Shown here piece by piece: positions 24,772 through 49,991 of a DNA stretch of 64,000 nucleotides. The position numbers and the translations under genes were made by a program. The notes under the pieces were generated by a model that made no database searches, was not told where the DNA came from, and was given only the letters and a program-made list of their open reading frames with translations. Within the stretch, counting starts at the first letter, position 1. The number at the start of each line of letters is the position of its first letter. Source of the DNA: Nodularia sp. NIES-3585 (GTDB lineage: Bacteria > Cyanobacteriota > Cyanobacteriia > Cyanobacteriales > Nostocaceae); NCBI RefSeq assembly GCF_002218065.1, contig NZ_BDUB01000001.1, positions 3,381,270 to 3,445,269 on the forward strand. Direction: 5' to 3'.

Positions 24772-25029
24772 ATGGTTCGAGAGTTAGAAAGAAAACGTCA
24801 GAGTGCAGAATTTCCAGAAACAGCGCCAGCTGCGAATCCTGTATTTTTTAGAACCTACAGCCGCCGCACAAAGGCAGGGTTGAGGGAAACATGGGATGAG
24901 GTATGCGATCGCACTATTCAAGGCATCATCGAACTAGGGAAGCTCACCCCAGCCGAAATTGCCATCCTAGAGAATATGCAACGCAACCTCAAAGCCTTAC
25001 CCAGTGGCCGCTGGTTATGGGTAGGTGGT
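24772..25029 (+). CDS. nrdJ: nrdJ exon 1 (class II ribonucleotide reductase)
   Basis: Exon 1 encodes residues 1-86 of the adenosylcobalamin-dependent ribonucleotide reductase, which turns ribonucleotides into deoxyribonucleotides without needing oxygen. It starts MVRELERKRQSAEFPETAP and ends SGRWLWVGG. The ATG at 24772 is preferred to a TTG two codons upstream. Reading on into the intron meets a stop at once. The 3' end at 25029 is supported by three things: the frame of exon 2, the conserved joined sequence WVGG-TEW, and TGGGT at 25018-25022 (-12 to -8), which pairs with ACCCA at 25381-25385 in the intron exactly as the equivalent bases of exon 2 pair with intron 2. Confidence 0.88.
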
Positions 25030-25697
25030 GTGTGATTCGTTGAGTCGAAACTGGCTAAAGGAAAGGCTTTTAGCTAATTCTTAGCCTGGAGATGACTCAC
25101 TTGGTTCGTAAAAAATCCTTTACAAAACTCATAACGGATACCCGAATAAGTAATGTATGGATAACCGAACCTTGACAACTGTATAACCTTATAGGTGATG
25201 TGATCATCCATCACAAAGTCCTATCCTCCAAGCGTGGGAGTGAAAGCATTTCCCCTACTTAGCGACTGGTTATCAAAGGGTAAAGCGGGGAAAAACGCTG
25301 GTAAAACCAAACCATGAGGTGAATCCCAGCAAGCAAGAGTGCATGGACAACGAAAGTGAAGGTACGTCTGAACAGTCGTAACCCAGTAAGCAGCGAAAAG
25401 AATGGTTGATACGCTGCGGTCAAAAGACACTGAGACACATAGGAACCCGAAAGTACCACCATAAAGGTCACGCTTTCCTGTCTCCGGCTGAGTAGTACCG
25501 TCCTAAACACTCAAACAAAAGGTTATACGGAACGAAGTAATCCTGTCTGCGGTTCTCTAAAAGTCGATTTTTGGAGTAGGAACCAATCCGCAAGCCCTGA
25601 CAGGAAGAGATGGAATCAGAAGCAAATGCCTATCTGTAATGGGTATGGATACGCTGATAGATTCCCGATGATTTGGAAGATAGAGTTTTAACAAGCA

Positions 25698-27497
25698 ATG
25701 AAAATGACTAAAACACGGAAAAATCCGATGGTGGTATGGACACAAGTGAACTGGCGCAAGCTAGAACGCACAGTGTTTAAGTTGCAAAAAAGAATCTATC
25801 AAGCCTCTGGTCGGGGAGATGTCAAAGCAGTGCGTAAATTGCAAAAGACTCTTCTGAATTCCTGGTCTGCCAAAATGCTTGCAGTTCGTAAAGTGACCCA
25901 AGATAACCAAGGCAAAAACACTGCGGGAATAGATGGGAAAAAGGCATTAATGCCTAAAGCCCGGATTGAGCTAGTGGAAACACTAGAACTAAATCATAAA
26001 TCCGCACCTACCCGTAGAGTATGGATTCCCCAGCCTGGGAAAACAGAAAAACGACCCTTGGGCATCCCCACGATTAGCGAACGAGCTAAACAAGCACTTG
26101 TGAAATTAGCTTTGGAACCCGAATGGGAAGCCAAGTTTGAGCCTAACAGTTATGGATTCCGCCCTGGCAGAAGTTGTATGGATGCTATTGAGGGTGTCAA
26201 AGTGGCAATTAAGCAAAAGAGCAAATATGTCCTAGATGCTGACATTGCAAAATGCTTTGGCAAAATTAACCACAAGAAACTGTTGAACAAAATCAATACG
26301 TTTCCAAAACTCCGCAGACAGATTAAAGCATGGCTTAAATCTGGTGCTTACGAAAACGGAACATGGTTTTCAACTGAAGAAGGAACCCCTCAAGGTGGTG
26401 TAATCTCGCCACTATTAGCAAACATCGCTTTACATGGAATGGAAAAGACTGTCAAGGAGTTTGCTCGAACCCTTCCAGGGAAAAAGGACAACAACGAGAA
26501 GGAAATCACCTTAGTCAGATATGCCGATGATTTTGTCATCTTACATCCCAATCTGGATGTACTCATGAAGGCTAAAGCACTGATTGAGGAATTTCTTAAT
26601 GATATTGGTTTAGAACTTAAACCAGAAAAAACTCGTATAACCCACACTTTGGAAACAATCAGCGAAGAAACCCCTGGTTTCGACTTCCTTGGCTTTAATA
26701 TCCGTCAATATCCAGTAGGAAAGTATGCAACAGGCAAAAACACACATGGAAAACCACTAGGCTACAAAACATACATCAAGCCAAGTAAAGAGGCTGTTAA
26801 AGCTCACTACCAAAGATTAGCCAACGAAATTGATCATCTAAAATCTTGTCAATCGCAAGTTGAGCTAATCAAGCGGCTAAACCCAATCATCACTGGATGG
26901 AGTAACTATTACTCCAAAGTCAACAGTGCTGAAATCTTTAAAGAGCTAGACCATCTTCTGACACGCAAGCTAATTGCATGGACTAAAGCTAGACATCTTC
27001 ACAAATCGACAAAACGGTGGATTAGGAAATATTTTGGCACTAAAGATGGGTCATCTTGGGTATTCCGGGCAATTACAGATGACAAGAACTTATATCTTCT
27101 GTATCACGGTGATTTCCATATCCAGAAATTCGTCAAAGTAAAAGGGGAAGTAAGTCCGTATAATGGCGACTTAACCTATTGGGCTACCCGCATGGGTAAA
27201 AGTGCCGAATTACCTACTAGAGTCTCCAAACTGCTGAAAAAGCAGAATGGAAAATGCACAGAATGTAGTCTTCACTTCAGAGATGGAGATGTAATGGAAG
27301 TAGATCATATTCTCCCCCGAACTAAAGGTGGAAAGGATGTTTACGGAAATTACCAACTACTACATAGACACTGCCATGACATCAAAACCAAACGGGATGG
27401 TACTCATGACAAGAGCCAAATTATTGAGGAGCCGTGTGATGCGAAAGTATCATGCACGGTTCTGAAGCCGAGTCACGTTGGCGACAGCGTGGCTTAG
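25698..27497 (+). CDS. Group II intron reverse transcriptase/maturase with HNH endonuclease (intron 1)
   Basis: A 599-residue intron-encoded protein that helps splicing and moves the intron by target-primed reverse transcription. Domains in order are an N-terminal RT0-like region, the reverse transcriptase (about 60-330, active-site YADD at 275-278), maturase domain X (about 380-450, LNPIITGWSNYYSKVNSA) and a C-terminal HNH nuclease (CTECSLHF, VDHILPRTKGG, HRHCHD). One oddity is KCFGKINH in RT motif A, with Gly 188 where intron 2 and most relatives have Asp; the preceding metal-binding Asp is kept. The frame continues through domains V and VI and stops six bases before the intron end. Identity to the intron 2 protein is roughly 60 percent by eye. 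Confidence 0.92.
   Translation: MKMTKTRKNPMVVWTQVNWRKLERTVFKLQKRIYQASGRGDVKAVRKLQKTLLNSWSAKMLAVRKVTQDNQGKNTAGIDGKKALMPKARIELVETLELNHKSAPTRRVWIPQPGKTEKRPLGIPTISERAKQALVKLALEPEWEAKFEPNSYGFRPGRSCMDAIEGVKVAIKQKSKYVLDADIAKCFGKINHKKLLNKINTFPKLRRQIKAWLKSGAYENGTWFSTEEGTPQGGVISPLLANIALHGMEKTVKEFARTLPGKKDNNEKEITLVRYADDFVILHPNLDVLMKAKALIEEFLNDIGLELKPEKTRITHTLETISEETPGFDFLGFNIRQYPVGKYATGKNTHGKPLGYKTYIKPSKEAVKAHYQRLANEIDHLKSCQSQVELIKRLNPIITGWSNYYSKVNSAEIFKELDHLLTRKLIAWTKARHLHKSTKRWIRKYFGTKDGSSWVFRAITDDKNLYLLYHGDFHIQKFVKVKGEVSPYNGDLTYWATRMGKSAELPTRVSKLLKKQNGKCTECSLHFRDGDVMEVDHILPRTKGGKDVYGNYQLLHRHCHDIKTKRDGTHDKSQIIEEPCDAKVSCTVLKPSHVGDSVA
27429..27462 (+). ncRNA. Group II intron 1, domain V
   Basis: A 34-nt hairpin with the AGC catalytic triad near its 5' end (GAGCCGTG), a GAAA tetraloop (GCGAAAGT) and the closing strand CACGGTTC. 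It is the catalytic core of the ribozyme. It overlaps the 3' part of the intron-encoded protein frame. Confidence 0.88.
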
Positions 27498-27503
27498 GGT
27501 AAT

Positions 27504-27617
27504 ACAGAATGGGTGAGCAAACCCAAAAACTTTTCTGGGGCTTATAACTGCACCTCCACCAACCTGCAAGACTGGAGCGCTTTCGGGTTGATGATGGATT
27601 TAGCCATGATGGGCTGT
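27504..27617 (+). CDS. nrdJ: nrdJ exon 2, a 38-codon micro-exon with an active-site cysteine
   Basis: This 114-nt exon lies between the two group II introns and encodes residues 87-124, from TEWVSKPKNFSGAYNCTSTN to DLAMMGC. The NCTSTN motif carries one of the redox-active cysteines of the reductase active site (Cys 102 of the spliced protein). Its frame joins exon 1 and exon 3 without gaps, giving VGG-TEW and MMGC-GTGAVIEP. ATGAT at 27606-27610 is the IBS2 for intron 2. Automatic gene callers will probably miss this exon. Confidence 0.9.
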
Positions 27618-28281
27618 GTGCGATTCGTTGGCTAGAAACCAATGCTATTAAGGCTTTGGAGGATTAGCCGCAAGGTAAATCTACCCTAACAGGTAAGAAC
27701 CTTGACAACTTGATAGTCATGTTGGTGACATCGAAACGTTTGAAAGTTAGTACAGAAAAATCATAGAAATATCTAATGGTAAAACTGGAAAGCATAATAA
27801 AAAACGCGATGAAGTCCAACCCCCTAAGTGCAAGGGTGAAAGCACTTTCCCCACGGTAGCGACTAGCCATCAATCCGTGAAGCGGGAATGAACGGTGGTA
27901 AGAAGCCAGTCCAGGCTTCGACTCCAACTAGCAGGAGAATATGGTTAGCGAAAGCGAATCTACGTTTGAATCATCGTGATCATTTAAAACAGCTTAGTGG
28001 ACTAACAGGCTGTGCCAAAAGGCAAGGGTAGAGTGACCGGATTTACATCCGTCTGGTCTGCACCACTCGTAACCCCGGTGAACAGTAGAAACCTAAACTC
28101 TCGACCAATGACTATCAGGAACGAAGTAACCATATAGATTCTCTCAGGAAGGTCGATCCCTGAGTAGGTGCTAACCGGATGAACTATGTGGCGAGATTGA
28201 GTCAGAAGCTAACGCCTACGGTAATGCGTAGGATACGCTGACGGACTCACGGAAAACAGATATATGTAAGTACAACTAGCA

Positions 28282-30111
28282 ATGAAGACGACTAAAACGA
28301 GTTTTAAGACTACGGTGGTATGGAACAACATCAACTGGAAGAAAATCCAGAGGATAGTGTTCAAGTTGCAAAAGCGCATACATAAAGCTGCTCAACGTGG
28401 GGATGTCAAAGCAATGCGACGACTCCAGAAAACCTTGATGAAATCCTGGTACGCCAAGCTACTAGCAACGCGAACTGTTACCCAAGACAACAAAGGCAAG
28501 AAAACACCAGGGATAGACGGGGTTAAATCACTCGGATACACACAACGTCTGGAACTAGCTAAAAATCTAGGAACTACAAGGAAGGTAAAACCTACCCGTA
28601 GAATCTGGATACCAAAGCCAGGAACAGACGAAAAACGACCTCTGGGGATTCCTACAATGGCAGATAGGGCTAATCAGGCACTCGCCAAAATAACTCTAGA
28701 ACCAGAATGGGAAGCAAAATTCGAGCCAAATAGTTACGGGTTCAGACCAGGAAGAGCGACACACGATGCCATCGAAGCTATATATTTGGCAATACATTGT
28801 AAAGCCAAGTATGTGTTAGATGCTGATATATCTAAGTGCTTTGACAACATTGACCATCAAAAGCTATTGAACAAATTAAACACATACCCCTCCATGAGAC
28901 GTTTAATCCGTAATTGGTTAAAAGCAGGCTTCATGGATGGAGGCGATATGTTCTCGACTGAAACGGGAACGCCACAGGGCGGAGTTCTCTCCCCACTGTT
29001 GTCAAATATCGCACTTCACGGTATTGAAGAGGTAATTAAGGAATATGCCAATACCCTACCTACTTATCGGAATTATGGGAAAAAGCACAACCGTAATGCC
29101 CTCAGTTTGATTCGTTACGCAGACGATTTTGTGATTATTCACGAAGATATCAATGTTGTGTTAGGGGCAAAAGCTGTAATCGAAGGTTACTTAAAAGACA
29201 TCGGCTGGGAACTCAAACCAAGCCAGACCAGAATTTGTCACACTTTTGAAGAATATGAAGGGGAACAACCTGGATTTGACTTCTTAGGTTTTAATATTCG
29301 ACAATTCCCGGTAAATGATGGGATGAGAGCAAAAGCACCAAAATCAGGTAAAATCCTGGGGTTGCAAACAATCATCCAACCCAGCAAGAAAGCAGCACAG
29401 CGTCACTATCAGGTTATATCAAAAATCATCGACTCCCACAAAGCAGCACCACAGAAGGTGCTAATCCAGAAACTCAACCCTATTATCCAAGGATGGGCTA
29501 ATTACTACTCATCTGTTTGCTCAATGGATGTTTTTCGAGATTTAAATCATCAGATTTACACCAAATTAATATCAGTGGCTCAATACAGACATCCGAGTAA
29601 AGGTAGTAAGTGGGTGGTAGAGAAATACTGGACAACTGTGGGCGGTGATAACTGGGTATTTGGTTACATAAACCCAGACACTGATGAAAGATATATCCTC
29701 TCAAAGCATACTTGGACAAAAATTGTCCGCCACACCAAGGTTAAAGGCGATCGCTCACCGTATAATGGTGACTTCGTTTACTGGGGAACAAGAACTGGAA
29801 AGAGCAAAGAGATTCCCTCTTTACTCGCAAAAACTCTTCACAAGCAAAAAGGTAGATGTGCCTATTGTGGTCTAACGTTGACAACAGAAGACCAAATAGA
29901 ACTTGACCACATTACACCAACTAGCTTGAGAGGAAAGAGAAAGTTCGATAATTTACAAGCATTGCACAGACATTGCCATGACAAAAAGACAGCCACAGAT
30001 GGTAGTCTGAGTAGTTCCCATGACAAGGGTATGTTTTCTGAGGAGCCGGATGAGGTGAAAGTCTCATGTCCGGTTCTGGAGACGAGTAGCACTCGTGAGG
30101 GTGTTGCTTAG
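28282..30111 (+). CDS. Group II intron reverse transcriptase/maturase with HNH endonuclease (intron 2)
   Basis: A 609-residue intron-encoded protein with the same domain order as its neighbour: reverse transcriptase (about 60-335, motif A DADISKCFDNIDH, active-site YADD at 279-282), maturase domain X (LNPIIQGWANYYSSVCSM) and HNH nuclease (CAYCGLTL, LDHITPTSLRGK, HRHCHD). All key residues look intact, so the protein is probably active. It lies inside domain IV and its frame runs through domains V and VI to six bases before the 3' splice site. The RT resembles the chloroplast-like class common in cyanobacteria, but the class was not tested by phylogeny. Confidence 0.93.
   Translation: MKTTKTSFKTTVVWNNINWKKIQRIVFKLQKRIHKAAQRGDVKAMRRLQKTLMKSWYAKLLATRTVTQDNKGKKTPGIDGVKSLGYTQRLELAKNLGTTRKVKPTRRIWIPKPGTDEKRPLGIPTMADRANQALAKITLEPEWEAKFEPNSYGFRPGRATHDAIEAIYLAIHCKAKYVLDADISKCFDNIDHQKLLNKLNTYPSMRRLIRNWLKAGFMDGGDMFSTETGTPQGGVLSPLLSNIALHGIEEVIKEYANTLPTYRNYGKKHNRNALSLIRYADDFVIIHEDINVVLGAKAVIEGYLKDIGWELKPSQTRICHTFEEYEGEQPGFDFLGFNIRQFPVNDGMRAKAPKSGKILGLQTIIQPSKKAAQRHYQVISKIIDSHKAAPQKVLIQKLNPIIQGWANYYSSVCSMDVFRDLNHQIYTKLISVAQYRHPSKGSKWVVEKYWTTVGGDNWVFGYINPDTDERYILSKHTWTKIVRHTKVKGDRSPYNGDFVYWGTRTGKSKEIPSLLAKTLHKQKGRCAYCGLTLTTEDQIELDHITPTSLRGKRKFDNLQALHRHCHDKKTATDGSLSSSHDKGMFSEEPDEVKVSCPVLETSSTREGVA
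30043..30076 (+). ncRNA. Group II intron 2, domain V
   Basis: A 34-nt hairpin starting GAGCCGGATGAG, with a GAAA tetraloop (GTGAAAGT) and the closing strand CTCATGTCCGGTTC. The AGC triad is present. It has the same size and fold as domain V of intron 1, with compensated stem changes. Confidence 0.9.
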
Positions 30112-30117
30112 TTTAAT

Positions 30118-33100
30118 GGTACGGGAGCCGTTATAGAACCGCAATATATTAATCAATTACCTCCCATCCGCAATTACTTAAATGTGACGGTAAACGGAGA
30201 AATTGGTAGCACAGATCCAGAATTACGCCGTGAATATACACAAACCCAGATAGAAGGTAACAACGTTATCATCCATGTGGGAGATAGCCGGGAAGGTTGG
30301 GTAGAATCCTATAAAAGCTTATTGGAACTTTCCACAGATGAACGATTTACAGCAGAAGTGCAAGTAGTCGTTGATCTGAGTGATGTTCGTCAGTCGGGAG
30401 AAACTCTCAAGGGCTTTGGCGGGGTAGCTAATCCTGTCAAGTTGCCAGGACTCTATCAGCGTTGTGTATCCATCCTCAATAAAGCCAGAGGACGACAATT
30501 AAATTCAGTGGAATGCTGTTTGTTAATCGATCAGGCTGCTGTCACAATTGTTGCAGGTAATATTCGGCGCTGTCTACCTGAAGATGCTTTGGTGCATACG
30601 AACAAAGGACTTGTTCCCATTCGTGATGTCCAAGTAGGCGACTTAGTGCAGACACCTCTGGGATTTCGGCGAGTTGTGGATAAATTTGACCAGGGGTTTC
30701 AGGATGTCTACGAAATTGAAACCAATGCTACTTACCCCAGGGCAACTTTAAATCATCGGCAAGCAGTGCTGGCAGATGCTAAAGGTAGTGTTGCGTGGAA
30801 ATCTATTGCTAGTTTAGTACCAGGCGATCGCTTGCTGCACAACACCCAAGTTTTACCAGGTACACTCACCCATTTACCCCCGGATTTTACAGCCTCCAGA
30901 CCGACACAAAGCCACACAGCTAAGTCATTAATTATTCCTGATCTCACACCTGAAGTAGCTTGGCTGATTGGGTTGACTCATGGTGATGGCTATGTTGCAC
31001 TCGGTCGAAATAAGCATGACAAGTCCTATGGCCGGGTTGAATGGACAATGAACAGTTTGGATTCAGAAATCACCGCTAGAATTCAAAGGAAAATAGATAC
31101 TGCTTTAGCTTTATTTGGATTGACTGCTACTCATGGTGTCATCAATCGTGAAAACACAGCTAAGTCAATATGTTCATCCATTCGCCTAGCTGAATACTTC
31201 CATCACTACATCAAGCAACCTCGTATTCCCTTAACCGTGCCTAATTTCATTTTGCAGGGTTCAGTAGATATTAGAGCCGCTTACCTAGCTGGATTAATGG
31301 ATAGTGATGGTGGAGTTAATAACCGACCCCCTCATTTAGTAACATCGATTTATCAGTCATTTATCAGACAAGTTGGTGCAGTTTTATCCAGCTTGGGTAT
31401 TGCGGGTAGACTCACCACTACTCGTCCCCAACAAGCCGGATGGCAACTGAAATACAACTTGACAATTCCTGCCCTCAAAGGGCGTTATAACAGTCTGATA
31501 GCGCTGCACTCTGTGAAAGGCGAACTACGTCAAGGGTTAAAAATGTATGGTTTTACCGTTCCTGGTGCAGTCATGCGGGAGGCTTACAGCTACAGCGAAA
31601 TGCGAGAAATGGGATTCCAAGGTTCTCGCACTGTTGATGCCAATTATGAGCGCTGTATCACCGAAACTGATATCTCATTAGATATTCCAGTCACAGTCAA
31701 AGGACTGGGAAGCTACGATCATGTCCACACTTATGACATTGAAGTTGAAGAAGCTCATTGTTTCTACTGCGATGGCTATTTGACACACAACAGTGCCGGT
31801 ATGCGCCAGTTCAAGGCAGACGATGAACAAGGCGCAACTGCCAAAGATAACCTCTGGCAACAGGATGAAAATGGCAACTGGCGTATTGATCCTGAGCGTG
31901 ACGCTTTACGGATGGCCAACCATACCCGTGTGTTTCACCGTAAGCCCACATTAGAAGAATGTGTTGATGCTGTTCGTAAACAATACTACAGTGGCGAAGG
32001 AGCGATTCAATGGGCAGGAGAAGCAGTCGCTCGATCCAATTGTGATTTGCTACCAACACAAGAGTTAAAAGTTGATTTCTTGAAATCTTATGAACAAGGA
32101 ACAGCAAAAGAGTGGTTACAAGCAAACTATCCTGATTTAGATGCCAAAGAACTAGAACATCGTTTAGGTCGTTACGGTTTAAATCCTTGTATTACTGCTG
32201 ACACTTGGATTCACACTGAATTAGGTGCGCGACAAGTCAAAGACTTGATAGGCAAACAATTGAGTGTATATGTCAATGGCGAATTATTCAGCACTACAAC
32301 CGATGGCTTTTGGTTGACAGGAGTCAAACCTGTATTTAAAGTGATCACTCAAGAAGGCTATGAATTGCGTTTAACAGGCAATCATCAGCTACTGAAAGTA
32401 ACAGCCCAAACCCAGAAAAAGCAATACACCGAGTGGGTAGAAACTCAAGATTTGCACCCTGGCGATTCTATTTTGGTTCATAACCATCGTGGAGTTCAAC
32501 CTTGGGAAAGCTTTGGTACTTTTGAGCAGGGTTGGTTGCTGGGTAGTCTGATTGGCGATGGTAGCCTTGCGGCAACACAATGGGGTAAAACAGCCTATCT
32601 CCGATATTGGGAAGACACCCAAGACGAAATGGGCAGATATGCTGTAACTTTACTCAAAAATGCGGTTGATTTTTCAGGTTCCACAGAATCCGGGTGCTAC
32701 CATGAACAGCTAAAGCATCGAGTCATCAATTCATCAAGCTTGGCTCGATTGGCAGCAGATTATGATGTTACCTTAGAGAATAAAATACCCACAGATAAAA
32801 TTGAGCAAGCCAGCTATGAGTTTTATCGTGGCTTTTTGCGTGGCTTGTTTGATGCTGATGGCAGTGTTCAAGGTAATCAAGAAAAAGGTGTTAGTGTCAG
32901 ACTGGCACAAAGCAATCTTGAAACTTTGAAGAGAGTTCAAAGAATGCTGTCCCGCTTGGGGATTATTTCCACCATTTATCAAGAACGTCGTCCTGAAAGC
33001 TATCGTCATCTTCCTGATAGTAATCGTGAACCAGCTTTATATCTCTGTCAGGCACAGCATGAACTGGTGATTGCTAATGATAATATCTCTTCTTTCCTAA

Positions 33101-35343
33101 CAATCGTGGGATTTCAGGAGCCGAAAAAAGCTGCACGCTTAGAAGAATTATGCGGTCAATACAAACGACAGCTAAATCGTGAGCGTTTCTCAGTTAAAAT
33201 CACAGAAATTGTGCCAGATGGTGTAGAAGCAGTTTATGACTGTACGGTGCCTGGAGTTTCTCGATTTGATGCTAACGGCATTGTGGCACACAATTGTGGT
33301 GAAATTATCGGCTCTAACTTCCATTGTGTCAGTGGTGATACCTTACTAATCACTAGAGATGGAATCCACAAAATTCAAGATGTTGTGGGCTGTGAAGTTG
33401 AAATTTGGAATGGTGAAAAATGGAGTCAAGTCAAACCATTTCAAACAAGTAGCGATTCTCCCCTGTATCGTGTGCGGTTTGGAGACGGTACATATTTAGA
33501 TGTGACTGAGTATCACCGCTTCTTTGTTAAAGATAGGTTTGGCAAGACTTACAAAGAAGTACAAACAAAAGATTTGATGGATACTAGCCAATATAGTATT
33601 CACACTGAGCCGTTTACGATTCAGTACGATGATGGATTGAGTATTGATGTCAGCTATGCTTACACTCTAGGCGCAGCTGTCGGAGATGGTACAACAGATA
33701 AAAATGACAATGCCAAAATTAGGTTATATGGCAAAAAAACAGCTTTATCTGTTGCAGGAAATAAATCTGCAACCAGAGAGTATGACTACTTACCTAGTTT
33801 TACAGATGCTACAAATTTAGGTTTTTCTGGGGAATTCCTCAAAAGCCTGAAAACAAATCCAGAAGCCTTAAATGTCATTGCTAGTTGGAATCGTACCGCA
33901 ATTTTACATTTTCTGGCTGGTTTAGCTGATACAGATGGCTCCAATACTCACAGCAATGGGATCAGAATTTATATCTCTGACTATGAGCGAGCATACCGAG
34001 TTCAGTTACTACTAACTAAGTGTGGTATTCGTTCATCTTTGAATCTTTGCGCTCATCAAGGGGCTGTGACTAACTATGGTGTTAGAAGCAAAGATTTATA
34101 CTACTTGCAAATAACTGATTGTGGCGAGATTCCTTGTCAGCGATTGGATGTGAGTAAAGGTACAAATGCCAAGTGCAAAGGTAAATGGCAAGTTGTCAAG
34201 GGTGTTGAACAATTGCCAGGATTACATAATACTTACTGCTTTAATGAGCCGGAGTATCATAAGGGCGTTTTTGGTAATACACTCACCGGCAACTGTAATT
34301 TGGCGGAGATACACTTAAATCAAATTGATCCAAAGAACTATAAAGAACAAGAGGAGGCTTTCACGGCTGGGGCATTATCTGTAGCAGCACTTTTAAATCA
34401 TCAATTTTTAGAACCCCGCTATCAAGAAAGCCGGGAATTAGATCCGATTGTTGGGGTTTCTTTCACAGGTTTATTTGATTTCTTTGTTCATGCTTTTGGT
34501 GTTGACTGGCTCCATTGGTGGGAGGAAGGAAGACCGGAAACTCCCCAAGGATTAGCCTTTAAGCAGGAGGAACAGAAATATTTAACCTTCTGGAAAGATA
34601 CGGTGCATCGAGTTGTGTGGGAATATTGCGATCGCCATCAAATAAAACGACCCAATCGCTGTACCACAGTCCAACCCAGTGGCACTAAATCCCTGCTCAC
34701 AGGCGCTAGTTCTGGCTGGCATCCCCCCAAAGCCCAAAGATTTATTCGCCGGATCACTTTTGGCAAAAATGACCCCGTAGCCCTAGCCTGCATTGACTAC
34801 GGTTACAGCGTTATCCCCTCCCAATCTGACAAAGATGAACAGGGTAACTTGTTAAATGATCCCTTTGACCCCCGTGTTAGTGAATGGCTGGTAGAAATCC
34901 CCGTAGCTGTATCTTGGGCTGATGTCCCAGGAGCCGACCAAATTGATGTTTCTCAGTTTTCTGTACTAGCTCAATTTGATTTTGTCCTGCAAGTTCAGCG
35001 CTGGTATGTGACTCACAACACATCAGCAACTTTGGAATTGCGGTCTGAAGAAGTTGAAGGATTGGGACAGAAGATTTACGAAACCATCCAAAATGATCAA
35101 GGCTATATTTCCGCCGCACTTTTAGCTCGCTTTGACGATTTGCAATCATTCCCCCGACTACCATTTGAGCCAATAGACAAACTCACCTATGAGCGCTTAA
35201 ATCAAGAAGTGAAAGGGCGACGCAACACAGATGATTTCTGTGCAGTTCTCAGCCGCTATGATTCCGGCGAATTAACAGAAGCTGGACCAAGTGGCTGTGA
35301 CTCAGACAAGTGTATGTTTCCCGACCAGGGACCAATGTCCTAA
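30118..35343 (+). CDS. nrdJ: nrdJ exon 3, encoding the rest of the reductase plus three inteins
   Basis: One open frame of 1741 codons that starts GTGAVIEPQYINQL and ends in the C-terminal redox pair GCDSDKC. It encodes extein residues 125-766, interrupted by inteins at 30571-31791, 32188-33294 and 33325-34293. The extein pieces are 151, 132, 10 and 349 residues. The thiyl-radical motif NPCGEI straddles the intein 2 site (Cys 408 of the spliced protein). After removal of all introns and inteins the product is about 766 residues, a normal class II size. The gene has no neighbour of obvious related function. Confidence 0.93.
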   Translation, partial: GTGAVIEPQYINQLPPIRNYLNVTVNGEIGSTDPELRREYTQTQIEGNNVIIHVGDSREGWVESYKSLLELSTDERFTAEVQVVVDLSDVRQSGETLKGFGGVANPVKLPGLYQRCVSILNKARGRQLNSVECCLLIDQAAVTIVAGNIRRCLPEDALVHTNKGLVPIRDVQVGDLVQTPLGFRRVVDKFDQGFQDVYEIETNATYPRATLNHRQAVLADAKGSVAWKSIASLVPGDRLLHNTQVLPGTLTHLPPDFTASRPTQSHTAKSLIIPDLTPEVAWLIGLTHGDGYVALGRNKHDKSYGRVEWTMNSLDSEITARIQRKIDTALALFGLTATHGVINRENTAKSICSSIRLAEYFHHYIKQPRIPLTVPNFILQGSVDIRAAYLAGLMDSDGGVNNRPPHLVTSIYQSFIRQVGAVLSSLGIAGRLTTTRPQQAGWQLKYNLTIPALKGRYNSLIALHSVKGELRQGLKMYGFTVPGAVMREAYSYSEMREMGFQGSRTVDANYERCITETDISLDIPVTVKGLGSYDHVHTYDIEVEEAHCFYCDGYLTHNSAGMRQFKADDEQGATAKDNLWQQDENGNWRIDPERDALRMANHTRVFHRKPTLEECVDAVRKQYYSGEGAIQWAGEAVARSNCDLLPTQELKVDFLKSYEQGTAKEWLQANYPDLDAKELEHRLGRYGLNPCITADTWIHTELGARQVKDLIGKQLSVYVNGELFSTTTDGFWLTGVKPVFKVITQEGYELRLTGNHQLLKVTAQTQKKQYTEWVETQDLHPGDSILVHNHRGVQPWESFGTFEQGWLLGSLIGDGSLAATQWGKTAYLRYWEDTQDEMGRYAVTLLKNAVDFSGSTESGCYHEQLKHRVINSSSLARLAADYDVTLENKIPTDKIEQASYEFYRGFLRGLFDADGSVQGNQEKGVSVRLAQSNLETLKRVQRMLSRLGIISTIYQERRPESYRHLPDSNREPALYLCQAQHELVIANDNISSFLTIVGFQEPKKAARLEELCGQYKRQLNRERFSVKITEIVPDGVEAVYDCTVPGVSRFDANGIVAHNCGEIIGSNFHCVSGDTLLITRDGIHKIQDVVGCEVEIWNGEKWSQVKPFQTSSDSPLYRVRFGDGTYLDVTEYHRFFVKDRFGKTYKEVQTKDLMDTSQYSIHTEPFTIQYDDGLSIDVSYAYTLGAAVGDGTTDKNDNAKIRLYGKKTALSVAGNKSATREYDYLPSFTDATNLGFSGEFLKSLKTNPEALNVIASWNRTAILHFLAGLADTDGSNTHSNGIRIYISDYERAYRVQLLLTKCGIRSSLNLCAHQGAVTNYGVRSKDLYYLQITDCGEIPCQRLDVSKGTNAKCKGKWQVVKGVEQLPGLHNTYCFNEPEYHKGVFGNTLTGNCNLAEIHLNQIDPKNYKEQEEAFTAGALSVAALLNHQFLEPRYQESRELDPIVGVSFTGLFDFFVHAFGVDWLHWWEEGRPETPQGLAFKQEEQKYLTFWKDTVHRVVWEYCDRHQIKRPNRCTTVQPSGTKSLLTGASSGWHPPKAQRFIRRITFGKNDPVALACIDYGYSVIPSQSDKDEQGNLLNDPFDPRVSEWLVEIPVAVSWADVPGADQIDVSQFSVLAQFDFVLQVQRWYVTHNTSATLELRSEEVEGLGQKIYETIQNDQGYISAALLARFDDLQSFPRLPFEPIDKLTYERLNQEVKGRRNTDDFCAVLSRYDSGELTEAGPSGCDSDKCMFPDQGPMS
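30571..31791 (+). other. Intein 1 in NrdJ (407 residues, LAGLIDADG type)
   Basis: This self-excising element lies between extein ...AGNIRR and SAGMRQF. It starts with Cys (CLPEDALVHT) and ends His-Asn, with Ser as +1 residue. Block B has TLNH, and block F contains HTYDIEVEEAHCFYCDGY. The homing-endonuclease part has two dodecapeptide motifs, LIGLTHGDG and LAGLMDSDG, each with its acidic residue, so it may still be active. Confidence 0.92.
32188..33294 (+). other. Intein 2 in NrdJ (369 residues) at the catalytic NP|CGEI site
   Basis: It is inserted between Pro and the thiyl-radical Cys of NPCGEI. It starts CITADTWIHTELGARQVKDL and ends AHN, and the +1 residue is the catalytic Cys itself. Block B contains TGNH. 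Dodecapeptide motifs are LLGSLIGDG and LRGLFDADG, both with acidic residues. The enzyme cannot be active before this intein leaves. Confidence 0.92.
33325..34293 (+). other. Intein 3 in NrdJ (323 residues)
   Basis: It is inserted between SNFH and CNLAEIHLN, ten extein residues after intein 2. It starts CVSGDTLLITRDG and ends LTGN with Cys as +1 residue. The residue before the terminal Asn is Gly instead of the usual His. Block B has TEYH. Dodecapeptide motifs are LGAAVGDG and LAGLADTDG. It is the smallest of the three but still carries an endonuclease-type domain. Confidence 0.9.
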
Positions 35344-37460: not shown

Positions 37461-38510
37461 ATGACTCAAGCACCAGAATCTCTAGATTTGTCTATGAATG
37501 ATGCCGCAGATAAAAACTTAGATCGTGATTGTACAACGTTATCGCGTCACGTACTCCAGCAAATGCAAAGTTTTGGAGCAGATGCACAAGACTTGAGTAT
37601 GCTGATGAATCGCATCGGTTTGGCGGGTAAGCTGGTGGCTCGTCGTCTCAGCCGTGCTGGTTTAATGGAAGGTGTGCTGGGATTTTCAGGAGATGTAAAT
37701 GTCCAAGGCGAATCCGTCAAAAAGATGGATGTCTATGCCAATGACGTATTTATCTCGGTGTTTAAGCAAAGTGGCTTAGTCTGTCGCCTAGCTTCTGAGG
37801 AAATGGAAGAACCCTACTACATCCCAGAAAACTGCCCCATTGGTCGCTATACCTTGCTCTATGACCCCATTGATGGCTCATCGAACACCGATACTAATTT
37901 GAGTTTGGGTTCTATTTTCGCGATTCGTCAACAACAAGGTGATGATGTCGATCACAAAGCCACTGACCTCTTGACCAACGGACGCAAGCAAATCGCCGCC
38001 GGATATATACTGTACGGCCCTAGCACAATGCTGGTCTATAGTATGGGTAATGGCGTTCATTCTTTTACCCTTGACCCCAGCTTGGGAGAGTTTATCCTCT
38101 CGGAAGAAAATATCCAAATTCCTAAGCACGGTTCTGTTTATAGCGTCAACGAAGGGAATTTTTGGCAGTGGGAAGAATCAATGCGGGAGTATATCCGCTA
38201 CGTCCATCGGACTGAAGGCTATACGGCTCGTTATAGTGGCGCGATGGTGAGTGATATCCATCGAATTTTAGTTCAAGGTGGCGTATTTCTCTATCCAGGT
38301 ACAATTCAGAACCCAGAAGGTAAATTACGCTTGCTTTATGAATCTGCTCCTTTGGCTATGTTGATTGAACAAGCAGGTGGTCGCGCGACTACAGGTTTAG
38401 TAGATATTTTGGACGTAGTACCCAAGAAACTGCATCAACGCACACCTTTGATTATTGGTAGTAAAGAAGATGTAGCTAAAGTGGAGTCTTTTATTCAAAA
38501 CGGACACTAA
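37461..38510 (+). CDS. fbp: Fructose-1,6-bisphosphatase class I
   Basis: This 349-residue enzyme removes the 1-phosphate of fructose-1,6-bisphosphate in the Calvin cycle and gluconeogenesis. The metal- and substrate-binding [20 protein letters not shown] at about 134-153 is diagnostic. SEEMEEPY carries metal-binding acidic residues, and [10 protein letters not shown] near the C-terminus closes the active site. The ATG at 37461 has AGGGA upstream. It is the first gene of the fbp-tal-zwf-opcA group, the cluster known as the opc operon in Nostoc. Confidence 0.96.
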
Positions 38511-38840
38511 CCGCCGCTGCGCGGAAGTCAAAAGGGAGCCTCCGGCACGCTACGCGAACAAAAGTCAATTTTTTGACTTGTAATGTGTCGTTTATTTACA
38601 CGGTGCTGTATGAGATTGGATAAACCTCTACCAGTAATGAGAAGTGAATTTTGGCTGTGTGTTTGGATAATATCTGGGATTGGGGATGCACAATAGCCCT
38701 AGTGATGAATTAAAAATTACCTCAGCAGGTCGATGTCATAAGTGATTGCTAACGCCACAATTCAACAGTAAGCATCAATATCAGATGTATTTTGCGTTTT
38801 CTCACTTAGAAACATCATTAACAGGAGTAAAACTAGAGCT
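38511..38840. other. fbp-tal spacer with REP-like debris
   Basis: The left part has GC-rich repeat debris (CCGCTGCGCGG and CCTCCGGCACGCTACGCGAAC). The right part is AT-rich and ends with a ribosome-binding site (ACAGGAG) before tal. At 330 bases it is long enough to carry its own promoter for tal. No gene is evident. Confidence 0.45.
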
Positions 38841-40007
38841 ATGGCTACCAACCATTTACTAGAAATTAAACAACATGGTCAAAGTATCTGGATGGATAAC
38901 TTGAACCGTGAAGTTATTCAATCAGGTGAACTCAAGGACTTGATAGAAAATCAGGGTGTTTCTGGGATTACCTCTAATCCAGCCATTTTTGAAAAGGCCA
39001 TATCTAACAATGCGATGTATGATGCCGATATCGAAGCTGGTATTCGCGCTGGATTACCCATATACAAAATTTACGAATCCCTCGTTTTTGCAGATATTCG
39101 CAATGCTTGTGATATTTTGCGCCCCGTATATGAAGCCTCAAATAGACTGGATGGTTACGTTAGTATAGAAGTACCACCAACCATCGCCCATGATACTGAA
39201 GCATCAATAGCTGAAGCCCGTCGCTATTTCCAAGAAATTGGGCGGGAAAATTTGATGGTAAAAATTCCTGGTACAGTAGCTGGTTTACCAGCAGTGGAAC
39301 AGGCGATCGCTGAAGGTATTAATATTAATACCACGCTGTTATTTTCAGTCGATAGCTACATCAACACGGCAGAGGCTTATATGTGTGGCTTAGAAAAACG
39401 GGCAGCACAGGGTCAAGATATTAGCAAAATTTCTTCCGTGGCTAGCTTCTTTCTTAGTCGCATTGATAGCAACGTTGATGCCAAAATTGATGCCAAATTG
39501 AAGCGTGGTATTGATGATATCTCCCATGAGGCAAAACTGCAAGTTGTTAGGGGGAAGGTGGCTTCAGCGAAGCTCTCCGTAGCGATCGCTAACGCTAAAA
39601 TTGCGTACCAGGAATACAAAAAAATTATTCAAAGCGATAGATGGCAATCCTTAGCAGCCAAAGGAGCTAAAGTACAACGGTTACTTTGGGCTAGCACCAG
39701 CACCAAAGACCCAAAATACAAAGATGTCATGTATGTCGAAGAGTTAATTGGCCCTGACACCGTTAACACCTTACCACCGGCGACAATTGCTGCTTGTGCT
39801 GACCATTGCGATGTCGCTAATCGCCTAGAAACAGACGTTGAAGAAGCTTACCATCTGATGGCAAGCCTCAAAGATCCAGACATTAACATTGATCTAAATG
39901 TCGTCATGGACGAACTATTAGTTGAAGGTATTGACAAATTCGTTAAACCTTACGAGTCCTTGATGAACTCTTTAGAAAACAAAGTCAAGTTATTGTCGCC
40001 AGTGTAG
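38841..40007 (+). CDS. tal: Transaldolase
   Basis: A 388-residue enzyme of the long bacterial transaldolase type that moves a dihydroxyacetone unit between sugar phosphates in the non-oxidative pentose-phosphate pathway. The N-terminal SIWMDNLNREVI and GVSGITSNPAIFEKAI and the active-site stretch NLMVKIPGTVAG (Schiff-base Lys) are clear. It lies between fbp and zwf. The start at 38841 is supported by ACAGGAG upstream. A HIP1-related octamer interrupts the coding region harmlessly. Confidence 0.95.
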   Translation: MATNHLLEIKQHGQSIWMDNLNREVIQSGELKDLIENQGVSGITSNPAIFEKAISNNAMYDADIEAGIRAGLPIYKIYESLVFADIRNACDILRPVYEASNRLDGYVSIEVPPTIAHDTEASIAEARRYFQEIGRENLMVKIPGTVAGLPAVEQAIAEGININTTLLFSVDSYINTAEAYMCGLEKRAAQGQDISKISSVASFFLSRIDSNVDAKIDAKLKRGIDDISHEAKLQVVRGKVASAKLSVAIANAKIAYQEYKKIIQSDRWQSLAAKGAKVQRLLWASTSTKDPKYKDVMYVEELIGPDTVNTLPPATIAACADHCDVANRLETDVEEAYHLMASLKDPDINIDLNVVMDELLVEGIDKFVKPYESLMNSLENKVKLLSPV

Positions 40008-40112
40008 ACCTTAAACGTTTATCCTGAGCCTGCCGAAGGACACAACTCCTTTGTAGACGCGATTTTGCAGCGTCTAATTAACACACCACTCAACACCCCA
40101 CTGAAAACTTCT

Positions 40113-41642
40113 ATGGTTAGTTTGCTAGAAAATCCCTTGCGCGTTGGTCTGCAACAGCAAGGGATGCCCGAACCCCAGATTATAGTCATCTTTGGCGCTT
40201 CTGGCGACCTTACCTGGCGTAAATTAGTGCCAGCACTTTACAAATTGCGGCGAGAAGGACGCATCCCACCAGAGACAACTATCGTCGGCGTGGCGCGTCG
40301 AGAGTGGACTCATGAATATTTTCGGGAACAAATGCAAAAGGGCATGGAAGAAGCTCATGCTAGTGTCCCTTTAGGAGAACTTTGGCAAGACTTCTCCCAA
40401 GGTTTATTCTACTGTCCTGGGGACATAGACAAACCCGAAAGCTATCAAAAGCTAAAAACCCTCTTAAGCGAATTAGACGAAAAACGGAACACACGGGGAA
40501 ACCGGATGTTCTACCTCTCCGTCGCGCCTAACTTCTTTCCCGAAGCCATTCGGCAACTAGGGGGAGGCGGAATGCTAGACGACCCCTACAAGCATCGTCT
40601 GGTGATTGAAAAACCCTTTGGTCGGGACTTGGCATCAGCTCAAAGTCTTAACCAAATAGTGCAAAAATATTGCAAAGAAAATCAAGTCTACCGCATTGAC
40701 CACTACTTAGGTAAAGAAACCGTCCAGAATCTGCTAGTATTCCGCTTCGCCAATGCCATATTTGAGCCATTGTGGAATCGTCAATTTGTTGACCACGTGC
40801 AAATTACCGTAGCCGAAACCGTAGGCGTAGAAGACCGGGCTGGTTACTATGAACAAGCCGGCGCACTCAGGGATATGTTGCAAAATCACCTCATGCAACT
40901 TTATTGCTTGACGGCAATGGAAGCACCTAACTCAATGGATGCCGATAGCATCCGCACGGAAAAAGTTAAGGTACTGCAAGCTACCCGTTTGGCTGATGTT
41001 CCCAATCTGTCACGTTCAGCAGTGCGCGGACAGTATAGTGGTGGCTGGATGAAGGGTCAACAAGTGCCAGGGTATCACGAAGAACCAGGCGTTGACCCCA
41101 AATCCGGGACACCCACCTATGTGGCTATGAAGTTTATGGTTGACAACTGGCGCTGGCAGGGTGTTCCTTTTTACCTCCGCACAGGGAAGCGGATGCCGAA
41201 AAAAGTCAGTGAAATTTCCATTCACTTCCGCGATGTTCCTTCTCGGATGTTTCAATCCGCTTCTCAACAGCGAAATGCCAACATTTTAGCAATGCGGATT
41301 CAGCCGAATGAAGGAATTTCTTTGCGTTTTGATGTGAAAATGCCAGGGGCAGAATTCCGCACCCGTTCTGTGGATATGGACTTTAGTTATGGTTCCTTTG
41401 GCATTCAAGCAACTTCTGATGCCTATGACCGCCTGTTTCTCGATTGTATGATGGGCGACCAAACTTTGTTTACACGGGCAGATGAAGTTGAAGCAGCTTG
41501 GCAGGTAGTAACTCCCGCTCTTTCTGTTTGGGATACACCTACAGACCCAGCTACCATTCCTCGCTATGAAGCCGGTACTTGGGAACCCGCAGAGGCGGAA
41601 TTGTTAATTAACCAAGATGGTCGTAACTGGCGCAGACTGTAG
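40113..41642 (+). CDS. zwf: Glucose-6-phosphate dehydrogenase
   Basis: This 509-residue enzyme oxidises glucose-6-phosphate to the lactone and makes NADPH, the entry step of the oxidative pentose-phosphate pathway and the main reductant source in heterocysts and at night. The NADP-binding [11 protein letters not shown] is at about residues 28-38 and the active-site RIDHYLGKE at 194-202. The ATG at 40113 ([12 protein letters not shown]) is chosen. A TTG 16 codons upstream lies in a degenerate copy of a dispersed palindrome and is unlikely. opcA follows after 100 bases that contain AGTCATT heptamers. Confidence 0.96.
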
Positions 41643-46448: not shown

Positions 46449-49400
46449 CTACGCAATTGCCCCCAAGCCTTTGAGAGTAACAATAGTCGCAGCCGTAAAA
46501 CCTTTAACCCCTCTGATATTCATTCCCTCATAAAATTTTTTAGCCTTCAAAGTTTTTAAGCACTCACCCGTGCTGATATCCCAAATTCTAATCGTCTCAT
46601 CAGCGCCACTACTAGCCAGCGTTTGATTATCTGGGCTAAAGGCAATTGACCAAACCCAAGCTGAATGTCCAAATAAAGTTCTTTTGCATTCACCTGTATT
46701 AATATCCCATAACTTTACTGTGTAATCGGGACTGCTACTAGCTAGAATCTGACCATCCCGACTAAAAATCACTGCTTTGACGATACCATTGGCATAAACC
46801 TCGAAAGTTTGGAGACAAGCACCAGTGCTAATACTCCACAACCGGACTTTTCCATCATAACTAGCACTGGCGAGCAGTTCACCTTTGGGACTAAAAGCGA
46901 TTGACCAAACCCAATTATTATGTCCTTCCAGCGTTCTTTTGCACACACCAGTGCTGACATCCCACAACTTGACCGTTTGATCCCAAGCACCACTGGCCAA
47001 AGTCTGACCATCCGGACTAAAGGCCACCGACTGGACAGCAGCACGATGTCCCTGGAAAACTTGTAAGCCTTGACCCGTATTAATATCCCATAACCTCACC
47101 GTGTGGTCGTCACTACCACTTGCCAGTTTTTGCCCATCTGGACTGAAGACAACTGACTGGATGGCAGCAGAATGTCCTTGAAAATTTTGCCAGGATTGAC
47201 CTGTATTCACATCCCACAACTTAATTATGCGGTCGTCACTACTACTGGCTAATATTTTTCCATTTGGGCTGAAGGCAACTGATCGAACTACAGCACAATG
47301 TCCCTGAAAACTTTGCCGGGATTGACCCGTATTCACATCCCATAACCGGACAATTTGGTCATGACCGCCACTTGCCAAGATTTGTCCATCTTGACTGTAA
47401 GCAACTGACCAAGATTGGCTGGTGTATCCACTGAGAGTTTTGAGACATTGACCAGTGCTAACATCCCATAGTTTCACAGTTTGGTCATCACTGCTAGTGG
47501 CGAGAATATTCCCTTGCAAATTAAAGGTAACAGAAAGTACCCAACCAGAATGTCCCTGAAGAATTTTGAGACATTGACCAGTGCTAACGTTCCATAGTCT
47601 CACCGTCTGATCAAGGCTACCACTAGCTATGATATTGCCTTGAGGATTCATCGCAACTGACCAAACCGCAGCATTATGCCCCTGTAGAGTTTTAATGCAT
47701 TCACCAGTGCCAATATTCCACAACTTTACTGTTTGGTCATCACTGCTACTAACTATTGTCCGACCTTCAGGACTGATAGTGATTGATCGTATGCCATCAC
47801 CATGACCGCGCAAAATTTTGAGGCATTTACCAGTGCTGATATCCCATAATCTAATAGTGTCGTCATCACTACCGCTCACTAAGATGTGACCATCCAGAGT
47901 AAAAACTGCACAGATGATCCAACTTGTATGTCCATGAAAAGTTTTGAGGCATTTAGCAGTACGAACACTCCATAGTTTCATCGTGCGGTCATTACTGCCA
48001 CTGACTAGTGTATTACCATCGGGACTAAAGGCAATTGTCCATACTTCATGTTCATGTTCTCGTAAGGTTTGAAGGCATTGACCTGTATTCGTATCCCACA
48101 ACTTCACAGTGTGGTCACTACTACTGCTAGCAAGGATACTACCATCAGGACTAAAGGCCAGTGATGGAACCCAGTTAATATGTCCTTGACAAATTTGAAG
48201 TTGTTTCCAATCCGCAACTTGGTACAAGCGAATCTCACCATTGGTATCCCCGGTAGCCAAAAGTTCGCCATTAGGACTAAAGGCTACTGAGGCAATCCCA
48301 CCAAAGGTTTCAGTAAAAACTGACTTAGCTAAATCAGCATTTTGGAAATTGACATTGTGCAACTTCACATTTCGTAAGTCTGCTTGCCAAACGGTCATTT
48401 CAGAAAAATCATAGCCACTGAAATTTGTCTGGAGTTGACAAAGCAAATTAAGAATATTTCCAGCTGTGTACCCTGGTTCTTGTGGCGATTCTTCTCGGAG
48501 CCTGACTAAAATTTTATTTAATCTGTTTTCAATGCCTTTATTGCTTTTTAATACAGTGAGTAGCCCATCGATAACTGGTTTGAGGATGAGGCGAATTTGA
48601 ACTTCCCTAATGTAGTCTTTTGTACTAGCCTTGATCAGAGCGTGGCATCTAAAAAGCTGAATATTCTCAGTTGCAATCTCTTCACAGACTCGCTCTATTA
48701 ATACCTGAGTCATAAATTCCATGACTACAGGTTGTAGGGTGAAAGCTGCTGTAGTTTTCTCCACTAGTTTAGGGGTAGTCTTCTCAATTAGCGATCGCCT
48801 ACCTAAAGATTCTAAAGCCTCTAGTAATTTTGCCTGTGGTACTAGTGATACAATATCATCTCGCAATTCTGAGAGTGTAATCGACTCACGATTAATTGCT
48901 AGCCAGTACATGACATCCTTTTCTAAATCTGACAACCGCTCAAAATGCTGGTCTAGAATATCACGAATGTCACCAAAAACAGCCGTGTCTTGTTGTAAAA
49001 ATTCAGTTATATTACCATCAAATATATCTTGAATAGTCGTGGCAACTATTTTCAGGGCTAAGGGATTACCTGCATAGCGTTCAATCATTGCTTTCCATTC
49101 ATCTTCTGCTGCTGATAGCCCCTTGAGTTTTAAGATTTCTTGCCCTTCTGCTACCTTCAAGCCGCTCAATGGTAAAGAGCGCACAGGTAGTGTTTCTCCT
49201 TCGAGTAAAGCGACTTCTTTAGGTTTTTCGCGACTAGTTAGCACTAAGCAGCTTTGGTGAGTTGCTTCTCCTACGCGTCTTAAAAGCTGACCATATTCCT
49301 CATGTCCTTCTCGATAAACCCCGGCTCGACTACCACTGCGAAGAATTGACTCGGCATTATCAAGTATCAGCAGACAACGATGATTTTGTAAATAATCAAG

Positions 49401-49991
49401 TAATCTTGATATCCTCCCACTGACATTTTCCGGTAAGTTACTTTCTATTTCCTGTTCGTCAGATAGAAATTGGATCAGGTTAGCAATAATAATTTTAATC
49501 GGCGGAGCTTCTCTTAGCGATCGCCAGATCACATACTCAAAGTTTTCCTGAATCTGTTGAGCTAGCATTACAGAAAGTGACGTTTTACCAATACCTCCTA
49601 TTCCCAATAGTGTGACTAATCGGCATTGATCATCCAGAATCCATTGCTCTAAAGTAATCAGTTCTTCTTTCCGTCCATAAAAAACTGATGGGAAAATAGC
49701 TTCTCCCCAATACAGACGGTTATTTGCGGTAGAATAATCACTTTTCTCTATTTTTAAACCAAAAGCTGAAAAAAGCTTTTCAATAGTGTGTTTATCTACT
49801 CCGCCTTCACGATTTAGAACTTTTGAGATCGTACCGGGATATAATCCAGAACTGGCGCTCATTTCTTCGAGAGTGTACCTGTTACCAAAATTTTCCTTTG
49901 CTTCGGAGTTACGCTTCGCGTCCTGAATTTTTTGCAACCCTTTAGTAGTAAGTAAAACACCACGCTTACGTGTTTTATTTTGTAAAGTCAT
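46449..49991 (-). CDS. STAND protein: HTH - NB-ARC - 14 WD40 repeats
   Basis: A large 1180-residue regulator of the STAND class. A helix-turn-helix (about 38-82, [21 protein letters not shown]) is followed by an NB-ARC ATPase (about 100-430) with Walker [10 protein letters not shown] (131-138, Lys 136) and Walker [10 protein letters not shown] (206-214), and then a helical linker to about 570. Fourteen WD40 repeats (about 575-1140) fit two seven-bladed propellers. The C-terminal tail [12 protein letters not shown] is usual for such cyanobacterial proteins. STAND proteins are ATP-dependent switches, and several are antiphage or programmed-death sensors. Here the N-terminal HTH suggests DNA binding or a signalling adaptor, and no effector enzyme is fused. 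The role is unknown. Confidence 0.88.

What the first reader, a model, noticed from the sequence alone, without database searches (positions are those of the whole stretch)
24772..35343. One ribonucleotide reductase gene carrying two group II introns and three inteins
Sequence: five intervening elements, removed at two levels (RNA and protein), occupy about 8.3 kb of a 10.6-kb gene, leaving a 766-residue extein of normal class II size. All junctions rejoin in frame. Established knowledge: a comparable mosaic (four inteins and three group II introns) was described in the RIR gene of Trichodesmium erythraeum, so the principle is known. The combination and positions here appear to differ. Inference: nrdJ is a hotspot because each element targets a highly conserved active-site codon stretch.
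Basis: partly seen in the sequence, partly recalled or inferred. Interest (0 to 1): 0.9.

Follow-up and report, generated by a model that had tools for sequence, protein, structure and literature searches.

The report
Cyanobacterial ribonucleotide reductase gene, five inserts
A cyanobacterium's only detected gene for making DNA building blocks is interrupted by two self-splicing RNA introns and three self-splicing protein inserts; each sits at a site that similar mobile elements also use in other cyanobacteria, and the whole is a close counterpart of a known Trichodesmium gene.

Summary
Confirmed. The gene at 24772-35343 is a class II ribonucleotide reductase (nrdJ). It has three exons, two group II introns (2474 and 2500 nt, each encoding an RT-maturase-HNH protein) and three LAGLIDADG inteins (407, 369, 323 aa), leaving an in-frame 766-aa extein. 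Searches for other RNR classes in the genome found none.

Against a named Trichodesmium erythraeum MAG, intron A and inteins C, D, E occupy the same sites. Intron B does not: the Trichodesmium intron lies 9 codons further on. Its third intron and fourth intein are absent here, and its C and D inteins are distant alleles (34% and 28% identity). So this is a new member of a known kind.

Added here: A- and B-site intron proteins each form one supported clade. Each of the five elements has 2.2 to 7.7 times fewer silent changes to its best partner than the host gene has, which fits recent horizontal homing; two of the B comparisons show no excess. Among 125 fully scored family genomes only this one carries five elements. 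Intein D and a group I intron 6 nt away never co-occur (0; 8.4 expected, not corrected for phylogeny). RNA and protein splicing are inferred, not shown.

The parts
24772..25029 (+). exon 1 of nrdJ (extein residues 1-86)
25030..27503 (+). group II intron A (2474 nt), inserted between extein codons 86 and 87
   Evidence: full-length or near full-length relatives at the same site in 13 of 80 named loci
25698..27497 (+). intron A-encoded protein, 599 aa: RVT_N, RVT_1, GIIM, HNH
25455..25460 (+). candidate EBS1 of intron A (ACCACC), pairing with the exon 1 end GGTGGT
   Evidence: the pairing score is tied with one other column, so tentative
27426..27466 (+). domain 5 of intron A
   Evidence: RF04357, 55.4 bits; fold z -4.29
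27464..27503 (+). domain 6 of intron A; the A at 27496, 8 nt from the 3' end, lies in the bulge and in the maturase stop codon TAG 27495-27497
27504..27617 (+). exon 2 (extein residues 87-124), a 38-codon exon between the two introns
27618..30117 (+). group II intron B (2500 nt), inserted between extein codons 124 and 125
   Evidence: same-site relatives
28282..30111 (+). intron B-encoded protein, 609 aa: RVT_N, RVT_1, GIIM, HNH; 55% identical to that of intron A
27989..27994 (+). candidate EBS1 of intron B (ACAGCT), pairing with the exon 2 end GGCTGT
   Evidence: the pairing score is tied with two other columns, so tentative
30040..30080 (+). domain 5 of intron B
   Evidence: RF04357, 65.9 bits; fold z -2.60
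30078..30117 (+). domain 6 of intron B; bulged A at 30110, inside the maturase stop codon TAG 30109-30111
30118..35343 (+). exon 3 (extein residues 125-766 plus three inteins)
30571..31791 (+). intein C, 407 aa, between extein residues 275 and 276; starts Cys, ends HN before Ser; two LAGLIDADG motifs
32188..33294 (+). intein D, 369 aa, between extein residues 407 and 408; starts Cys, ends HN before Cys; two LAGLIDADG motifs
33295..33324 (+). 10-residue extein CGEIIGSNFH between inteins D and E; its first Cys aligns with Cys408 of 1l1l
33325..34293 (+). intein E, 323 aa, between extein residues 417 and 418; starts Cys, ends GN before Cys (no penultimate His); two LAGLIDADG motifs

Best explanation
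A functional, apparently single-copy nrdJ gene of a Nostocaceae-type cyanobacterium has been entered at five conserved points by five separate mobile elements. Two class CL-like group II introns are removed from the mRNA (ribozyme plus own maturase) and reach empty nrdJ alleles by retrohoming at one fixed site each. Three LAGLIDADG inteins excise themselves from the 1865-aa precursor and spread by double-strand-break homing with co-conversion. The product is a normal 766-aa B12-dependent ribonucleotide reductase. The intact intron and intein reading frames suggest that the elements are, or recently were, mobile, and that the gene is kept in function by splicing. Shown: boundaries, frames, domains, same-site relatives, empty sites, lower silent divergence, purifying selection. 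Inferred: splicing, mobility and endonuclease activity.
For: Clean frames and boundaries; group II domains and D5/D6 folds; intact RT, maturase and HNH domains and YADD motif. All 13 loci with an intron protein 64% or more identical to A's lie at nrdJ site A, and the next best (61% or less) lie elsewhere. A (14 rows) and B (10 rows, 9 genomes) are each one side of a branch with support 100, with families mixed inside A. dS of intron protein A to Nostoc sp. JL34 0.166 against 1.277 for the extein; B to G033 0.38 against 0.967; intein C to G040 0.052 against 0.240; D 0.046 and E 0.086 to G103 against 0.186. dN/dS of the extein 0.067, each of five exon pieces 0.036-0.116; intron proteins 0.10-0.17. 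Congeners lack A and B. Two congeners carry another D allele (29% identity) beside about 144 nt of diverged flank, a co-conversion footprint. No NrdA-type, NrdB or NrdD found, and extein matches only at this locus.
Against: No transcript or protein data. Intein E lacks the usual penultimate His (its same-site homologues share GN or were not tested for activity here). For intron B some partners show no excess over the host gene: IEP dS 1.06 against 1.409 (L119), and DNA identity 80.1 against 79.9% (L200) and 85.2 against 84.3% (L120). Lower dS in inserts could partly reflect constraint on RNA structure in the introns or codon effects. The family PF02867 does not hit this gene itself, so a very different RNR could have been missed.
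Confidence: 0.92

Rival explanations
1. Vertical inheritance: all five elements were in an ancestral cyanobacterial nrdJ and have been lost in most lineages.
For: Sites are identical across several families, and many genomes have none or few (22 of 125 have none).
Against: Silent divergence of the elements to their best partners is 2.2-7.7 times below that of the host gene; the A clade mixes Nostoc, Microseira, Calothrix and Scytonema and pairs T. erythraeum with Richelia; close congeners have clean empty A and B sites.
Confidence: 0.06
2. The gene is a decaying pseudogene or an assembly artefact.
For: 83-element-rich genes such as this are long and could be misassembled in principle; no expression data.
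Against: Open frames, dN/dS 0.067, apparently the only RNR, genome in 4 contigs at 100% completeness, and the same elements at the same sites in independently assembled genomes.
Confidence: 0.01
3. Only one of the two intron proteins is needed: the A and B introns are similar enough that one maturase splices both, the other being kept for mobility.
For: The two proteins are 55% identical and the intron ends are alike; trans action of a cyanobacterial maturase on several introns is cited in PMC4424553 and PMC4649490 (passages seen).
Against: Both reading frames are intact and under purifying selection (dN/dS 0.10-0.17), and each lineage keeps to its own site.
Confidence: 0.15

Closest known systems
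[quoted passage not shown] Liu, Yang and Meng 2003, recalled; only the title seen in a reference list), compared here through the MAG record JAGGDU010000146.1 (L136/L163)
   Same: Intron at site A and inteins at sites C, D and E, introns all 5' of the inteins; A intron protein 75% identical; intein E 69% identical.
   Different: Its second intron is at extein 133/134, not 124/125; it has a third intron at 233/234 and a fourth intein near 545, both absent here. Its C and D inteins are distant alleles, 34% and 28% identical. Its A maturase frame is broken.
Plectonema radiosum NIES-515 nrdJ (G070, L119/L204)
   Same: Intron B and inteins C, D, E: four of the five.
   Different: No intron A.
Scytonema sp. 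RU_4_4 (L159) and Cyanobacteria bacterium UBA8803 (L161) nrdJ
   Same: Both intron A and intron B.
   Different: L159 has the short insert type of the group I site and no intein; L161 has no further insert.
Group I intron of the Nostoc punctiforme RIR gene (Meng et al. 2007, described in PMC12702839, passages seen)
   Same: Same gene; here a group I element (RF00028, 31.5 bits, below the gathering score of 50) lies at extein 409/410 in 50 of 125 scored genomes.
   Different: Absent from the window, where intein D occupies a site 6 nt upstream.

Membership tests
Group II intron (mobile, CL-like) | Domain 5 and domain 6 with bulged branch A | tested here: met
Group II intron (mobile, CL-like) | GUGYG at the 5' end and AY at the 3' end | tested here: met
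   (consensus as given in PMC4028801)
Group II intron (mobile, CL-like) | RT, maturase (X) and endonuclease domains in the intron protein | tested here: met
   (group_II_RT_mat above its cut-off for both: 328.6 and 311.8 against 300)
Group II intron (mobile, CL-like) | EBS1-IBS1 pairing with the 5' exon | tested here: inconclusive
   best or joint best columns (5.29 and 5.6 of 6), but tied with others
Group II intron (mobile, CL-like) | Splicing and retrohoming activity; assignment to class CL2 by an IEP tree with reference classes | not tested
   no expression data; no reference classes were put in the tree
Intein with LAGLIDADG endonuclease | Cys at position 1, TxxH block B, terminal Asn followed by Ser, Thr or Cys | tested here: met
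Intein with LAGLIDADG endonuclease | Penultimate His | tested here: not met
   met for C and D (HN), not for E (GN). Not an absolute requirement in known inteins (recalled)
Intein with LAGLIDADG endonuclease | Two LAGLIDADG motifs | tested here: met
   (three LAGLIDADG_3 stretches) and the sequences
Intein with LAGLIDADG endonuclease | Protein splicing and cleavage activity | not testable with these tools
   needs expression
Class II (B12-dependent) ribonucleotide reductase, NrdJ | RTPR family match and the catalytic cysteines | tested here: met
   TIGR02505 548 bits; alignment to 1l1l with Cys408 and Cys419 in place; Cys119 not resolved by that alignment
Trichodesmium-type RIR mosaic | Several group II introns in the 5' part and several inteins in the 3' part of one RNR gene | tested here: met
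Trichodesmium-type RIR mosaic | Identical set of sites | tested here: not met
   4 of 5 window sites shared, B not; 2 further Trichodesmium intron sites and intein site F absent

The most novel reading that the evidence does not exclude
In the nrdJ introns the maturase reading frame runs through the catalytic core (domains 5 and 6) and ends on a TAG whose A is the predicted branch point. Ribosome passage and termination there could couple maturase translation to lariat formation, so that an intron copy is not spliced while it is still serving as maturase mRNA.
Probability: 0.1. Interest if true: 0.7.

Novelty: new member of a known kind. Interest (0 to 1): 0.45.

Why it matters
It shows that the Trichodesmium gene is not a one-off. 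Cyanobacterial nrdJ has a set of recurrent entry points: three group II intron sites (A, B, and the Trichodesmium-type ones), a group I site and at least four intein sites. They can be watched filling and competing among close relatives. The window and its congeners (none, D, D+E, C+group I, and A+B+C+D+E) make a natural series for measuring what each splicing layer costs an essential gene. The adjacency of D, the group I intron and E within 30 nt makes competition between three element types for one catalytic segment testable.

Tried and rejected
Rejected: that window and Trichodesmium share intron site B. An automatic gap call suggested it, but reading the junction put that intron at extein 133/134. 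Rejected: G072 as an A+B genome; it has a tandem copy of the gene's 5' part. Rejected: my first figure of 48% DNA identity for the other D allele, because it compared D with D+E; the protein comparison gives 29%. The EBS1 search gave plausible but tied columns. Reading-through of D5/D6 as selected protein sequence: the last 29 codons have dN/dS 0.40-0.51 over very few changes and the frame is expected to persist because the RNA is conserved, so no claim is made. Paper searches for that overlap gave listings in which I saw no report of it; passages only of PMC4424553 and PMC4028801 were seen, so absence from print is not claimed. A search for the catalytic cysteine numbers in papers returned unrelated work. 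The order-wide search listed only part of its matches and was used only to find heavily split genes. About 16 of the 142 family genomes with a match were not fetched because their places were cut from the list, and G017 was left out as incomplete.
Full report
What is there. The gene runs from 24772 to 35343 on the + strand. Exons 24772-25029, 27504-27617 and 30118-35343 (258, 114, 5226 nt) join in frame to an 1865-aa precursor. Leaving out three inteins of 407, 369 and 323 aa gives a 766-aa extein. Domain 5 and RF00029 matches lie at the 3' end of both introns. Both intron proteins carry RVT_N, RVT_1, GIIM and HNH and pass the cut-off of the NCBIfam group II RT-maturase model. The exon 3 frame matches TIGR02505, the adenosylcobalamin-dependent enzyme. 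No match for PF02867, PF13597 or PF00268 was found in the genome, and the extein matched only this locus. PF02867 does not see this gene either, so that one search is weak.

Sites compared with Trichodesmium. A genome with a heavily split nrdJ proved to be the named record Trichodesmium erythraeum GBRTRLIN201 (contig of 21340 bases). Its introns lie at extein 86/87 (site A), 133/134 and 233/234; its inteins at 275/276 (C), 407/408 (D), 417/418 (E) and about 545 (F). The window shares A, C, D and E and has its own B at 124/125. Sharing a site is not sharing an allele: the T. erythraeum inteins at C and D are 34% and 28% identical to those here, E is 69% identical, and the A intron protein is 75% identical.

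Site loyalty and origin of the introns. A scan of genome contigs with an alignment of A and B intron proteins gave 309 relatives, of which the best 80 were kept. Sixteen of the 80 lie in nrdJ: 13 at A (two of these also have B) and three at B. All loci at 64% identity or more to the A protein are the 13 at site A. In a tree of 89 rows (84 distinct, quick method, SH-aLRT only) the 14 A rows and the 10 B rows (nine genomes) are each one side of a branch with support 100. Host families are mixed within A: the window pairs with Nostoc sp. JL34, near Microseira and Calothrix, and T. erythraeum pairs with Richelia.

Silent divergence. Intron protein A against Nostoc sp. JL34: dS 0.166, extein 1.277; against Microseira 0.432 and 2.428; against Calothrix 0.701 and 2.868. 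Intron protein B against G033: 0.38 and 0.967; L118 0.539 and 1.892; L142 0.776 and 3.15; L144 0.41 and 0.976; but L119 1.06 and 1.409. At the DNA level two B partners show no excess over the extein (L200 80.1 against 79.9%, L120 85.2 against 84.3%). Intein C against G040: 0.052 and 0.240. D 0.046 and E 0.086 against G103, extein 0.186. The extein has dN/dS 0.067, with 0.036-0.116 for the five pieces, so the gene is kept in function; the intron proteins have 0.10-0.17.

Family survey. Of 145 family genomes drawn, 142 had a match. I scored 126; 125 were complete, the window included. Counts: A 3, B 6, C 32, D 21, group I 50, E 23, F 2; 22 have none; 117 have neither A nor B. The window is the only one with five elements; G070 has four. 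The four congeners hold D only (two), D+E (one) and C plus the group I intron (one). Two of them (G080, G117) have a D intein only 29% identical to the window's, and the last 144 nt of the upstream extein there match the window at 23-29 of 36 bases per block, against 32-36 in nearly all other blocks; the first block is also low, 24-27, in these two. This looks like co-conversion during homing.

Competition. D (407/408), the group I intron (409/410) and E (417/418) lie within 30 nt. D and the group I intron are never together in 125 genomes (21 and 50; 8.4 expected; Fisher p = 9.5e-6, not corrected for relatedness). E and the group I intron co-occur in three of 125, so the exclusion is specific to D. 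The group I assignment rests on one locus: RF00028 at 31.5 bits, E = 2.1e-6, below the gathering score of 50. It was not found at the gathering threshold.

Why these sites. In the alignment with 1l1l, D and E sit directly before the residues aligned with Cys408 and Cys419. The radical and redox roles of these cysteines are recalled, not looked up. Each of these cysteines is also the +1 residue that protein splicing needs, so the host cannot mutate the splicing nucleophile without losing the enzyme; that is an inference. The five sites are more conserved than random places (p = 0.0034), site A alone not remarkably so (68th percentile), and part of the D and E windows was not scored.

A detail of the introns. 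In 14 of 23 nrdJ intron inserts examined (three of the 23 are an artefact, a differently placed intron, or a third-site intron) the maturase frame runs through domains 5 and 6 and stops 6 nt before the intron end. The A of that TAG is the bulged branch-site candidate in the folds of both window introns. In all 16 nrdJ loci the terminal frame ends on the same TAG, 66 nt after the start of domain 5, although several of these maturases are broken further upstream. Among 64 related introns elsewhere, domain 5 was recognised in 42; 27 read through it and 15 stop before it, and five show the same spacing of 66. The last 29 codons show weak constraint, so function is not claimed.

Literature. Liu et al. 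2003 (recalled; only its title seen) and Meng et al. 2007 (through passages of a review) are the precedents. Searches with RNR, intein, intron and cyanobacterial terms listed no paper in the held library describing this gene. Most subscription papers are not held, so nothing is said about absence from print in general.

Noticed in passing
L296 (G000:C1:4089500-4096500), about 2253-3044, minus strand: A further related group II intron copy of the same genome, with a truncated 191-aa intron protein, lies downstream of a psaB-like gene.
   Followed up: partly
L037 and L039 (congeners G080, G117), nrdJ upstream of site D: A different intein D allele (29% identity to the window's) with about 144 nt of diverged flanking extein, a likely co-conversion footprint.
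   Followed up: partly
L045 (G072), about 6445-7643 oriented: The 5' part of nrdJ is present twice in tandem, mimicking intron gaps.
   Followed up: partly
L172, L182, L214 and others: In some related introns outside nrdJ the maturase frame stays open hundreds of bases past domain 5, possibly into the 3' exon.
   Followed up: no
L130 (G121), group I site of nrdJ: The group I insert is enlarged to about 1.15 kb and holds a 330-codon open frame of unknown kind with no intein D or E match.
   Followed up: no
L138 (Okeania sp. SIO3I5), nrdJ: Intron A plus inserts at C, D, E, F and a further in-frame site near extein 656-662: six elements.
   Followed up: partly
window 37461-41642: FBPase, transaldolase and glucose-6-phosphate dehydrogenase genes in a row downstream of nrdJ.
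   Followed up: no
window 46449-49991, minus strand: A 1180-aa protein with many WD40 repeats.
   Followed up: no
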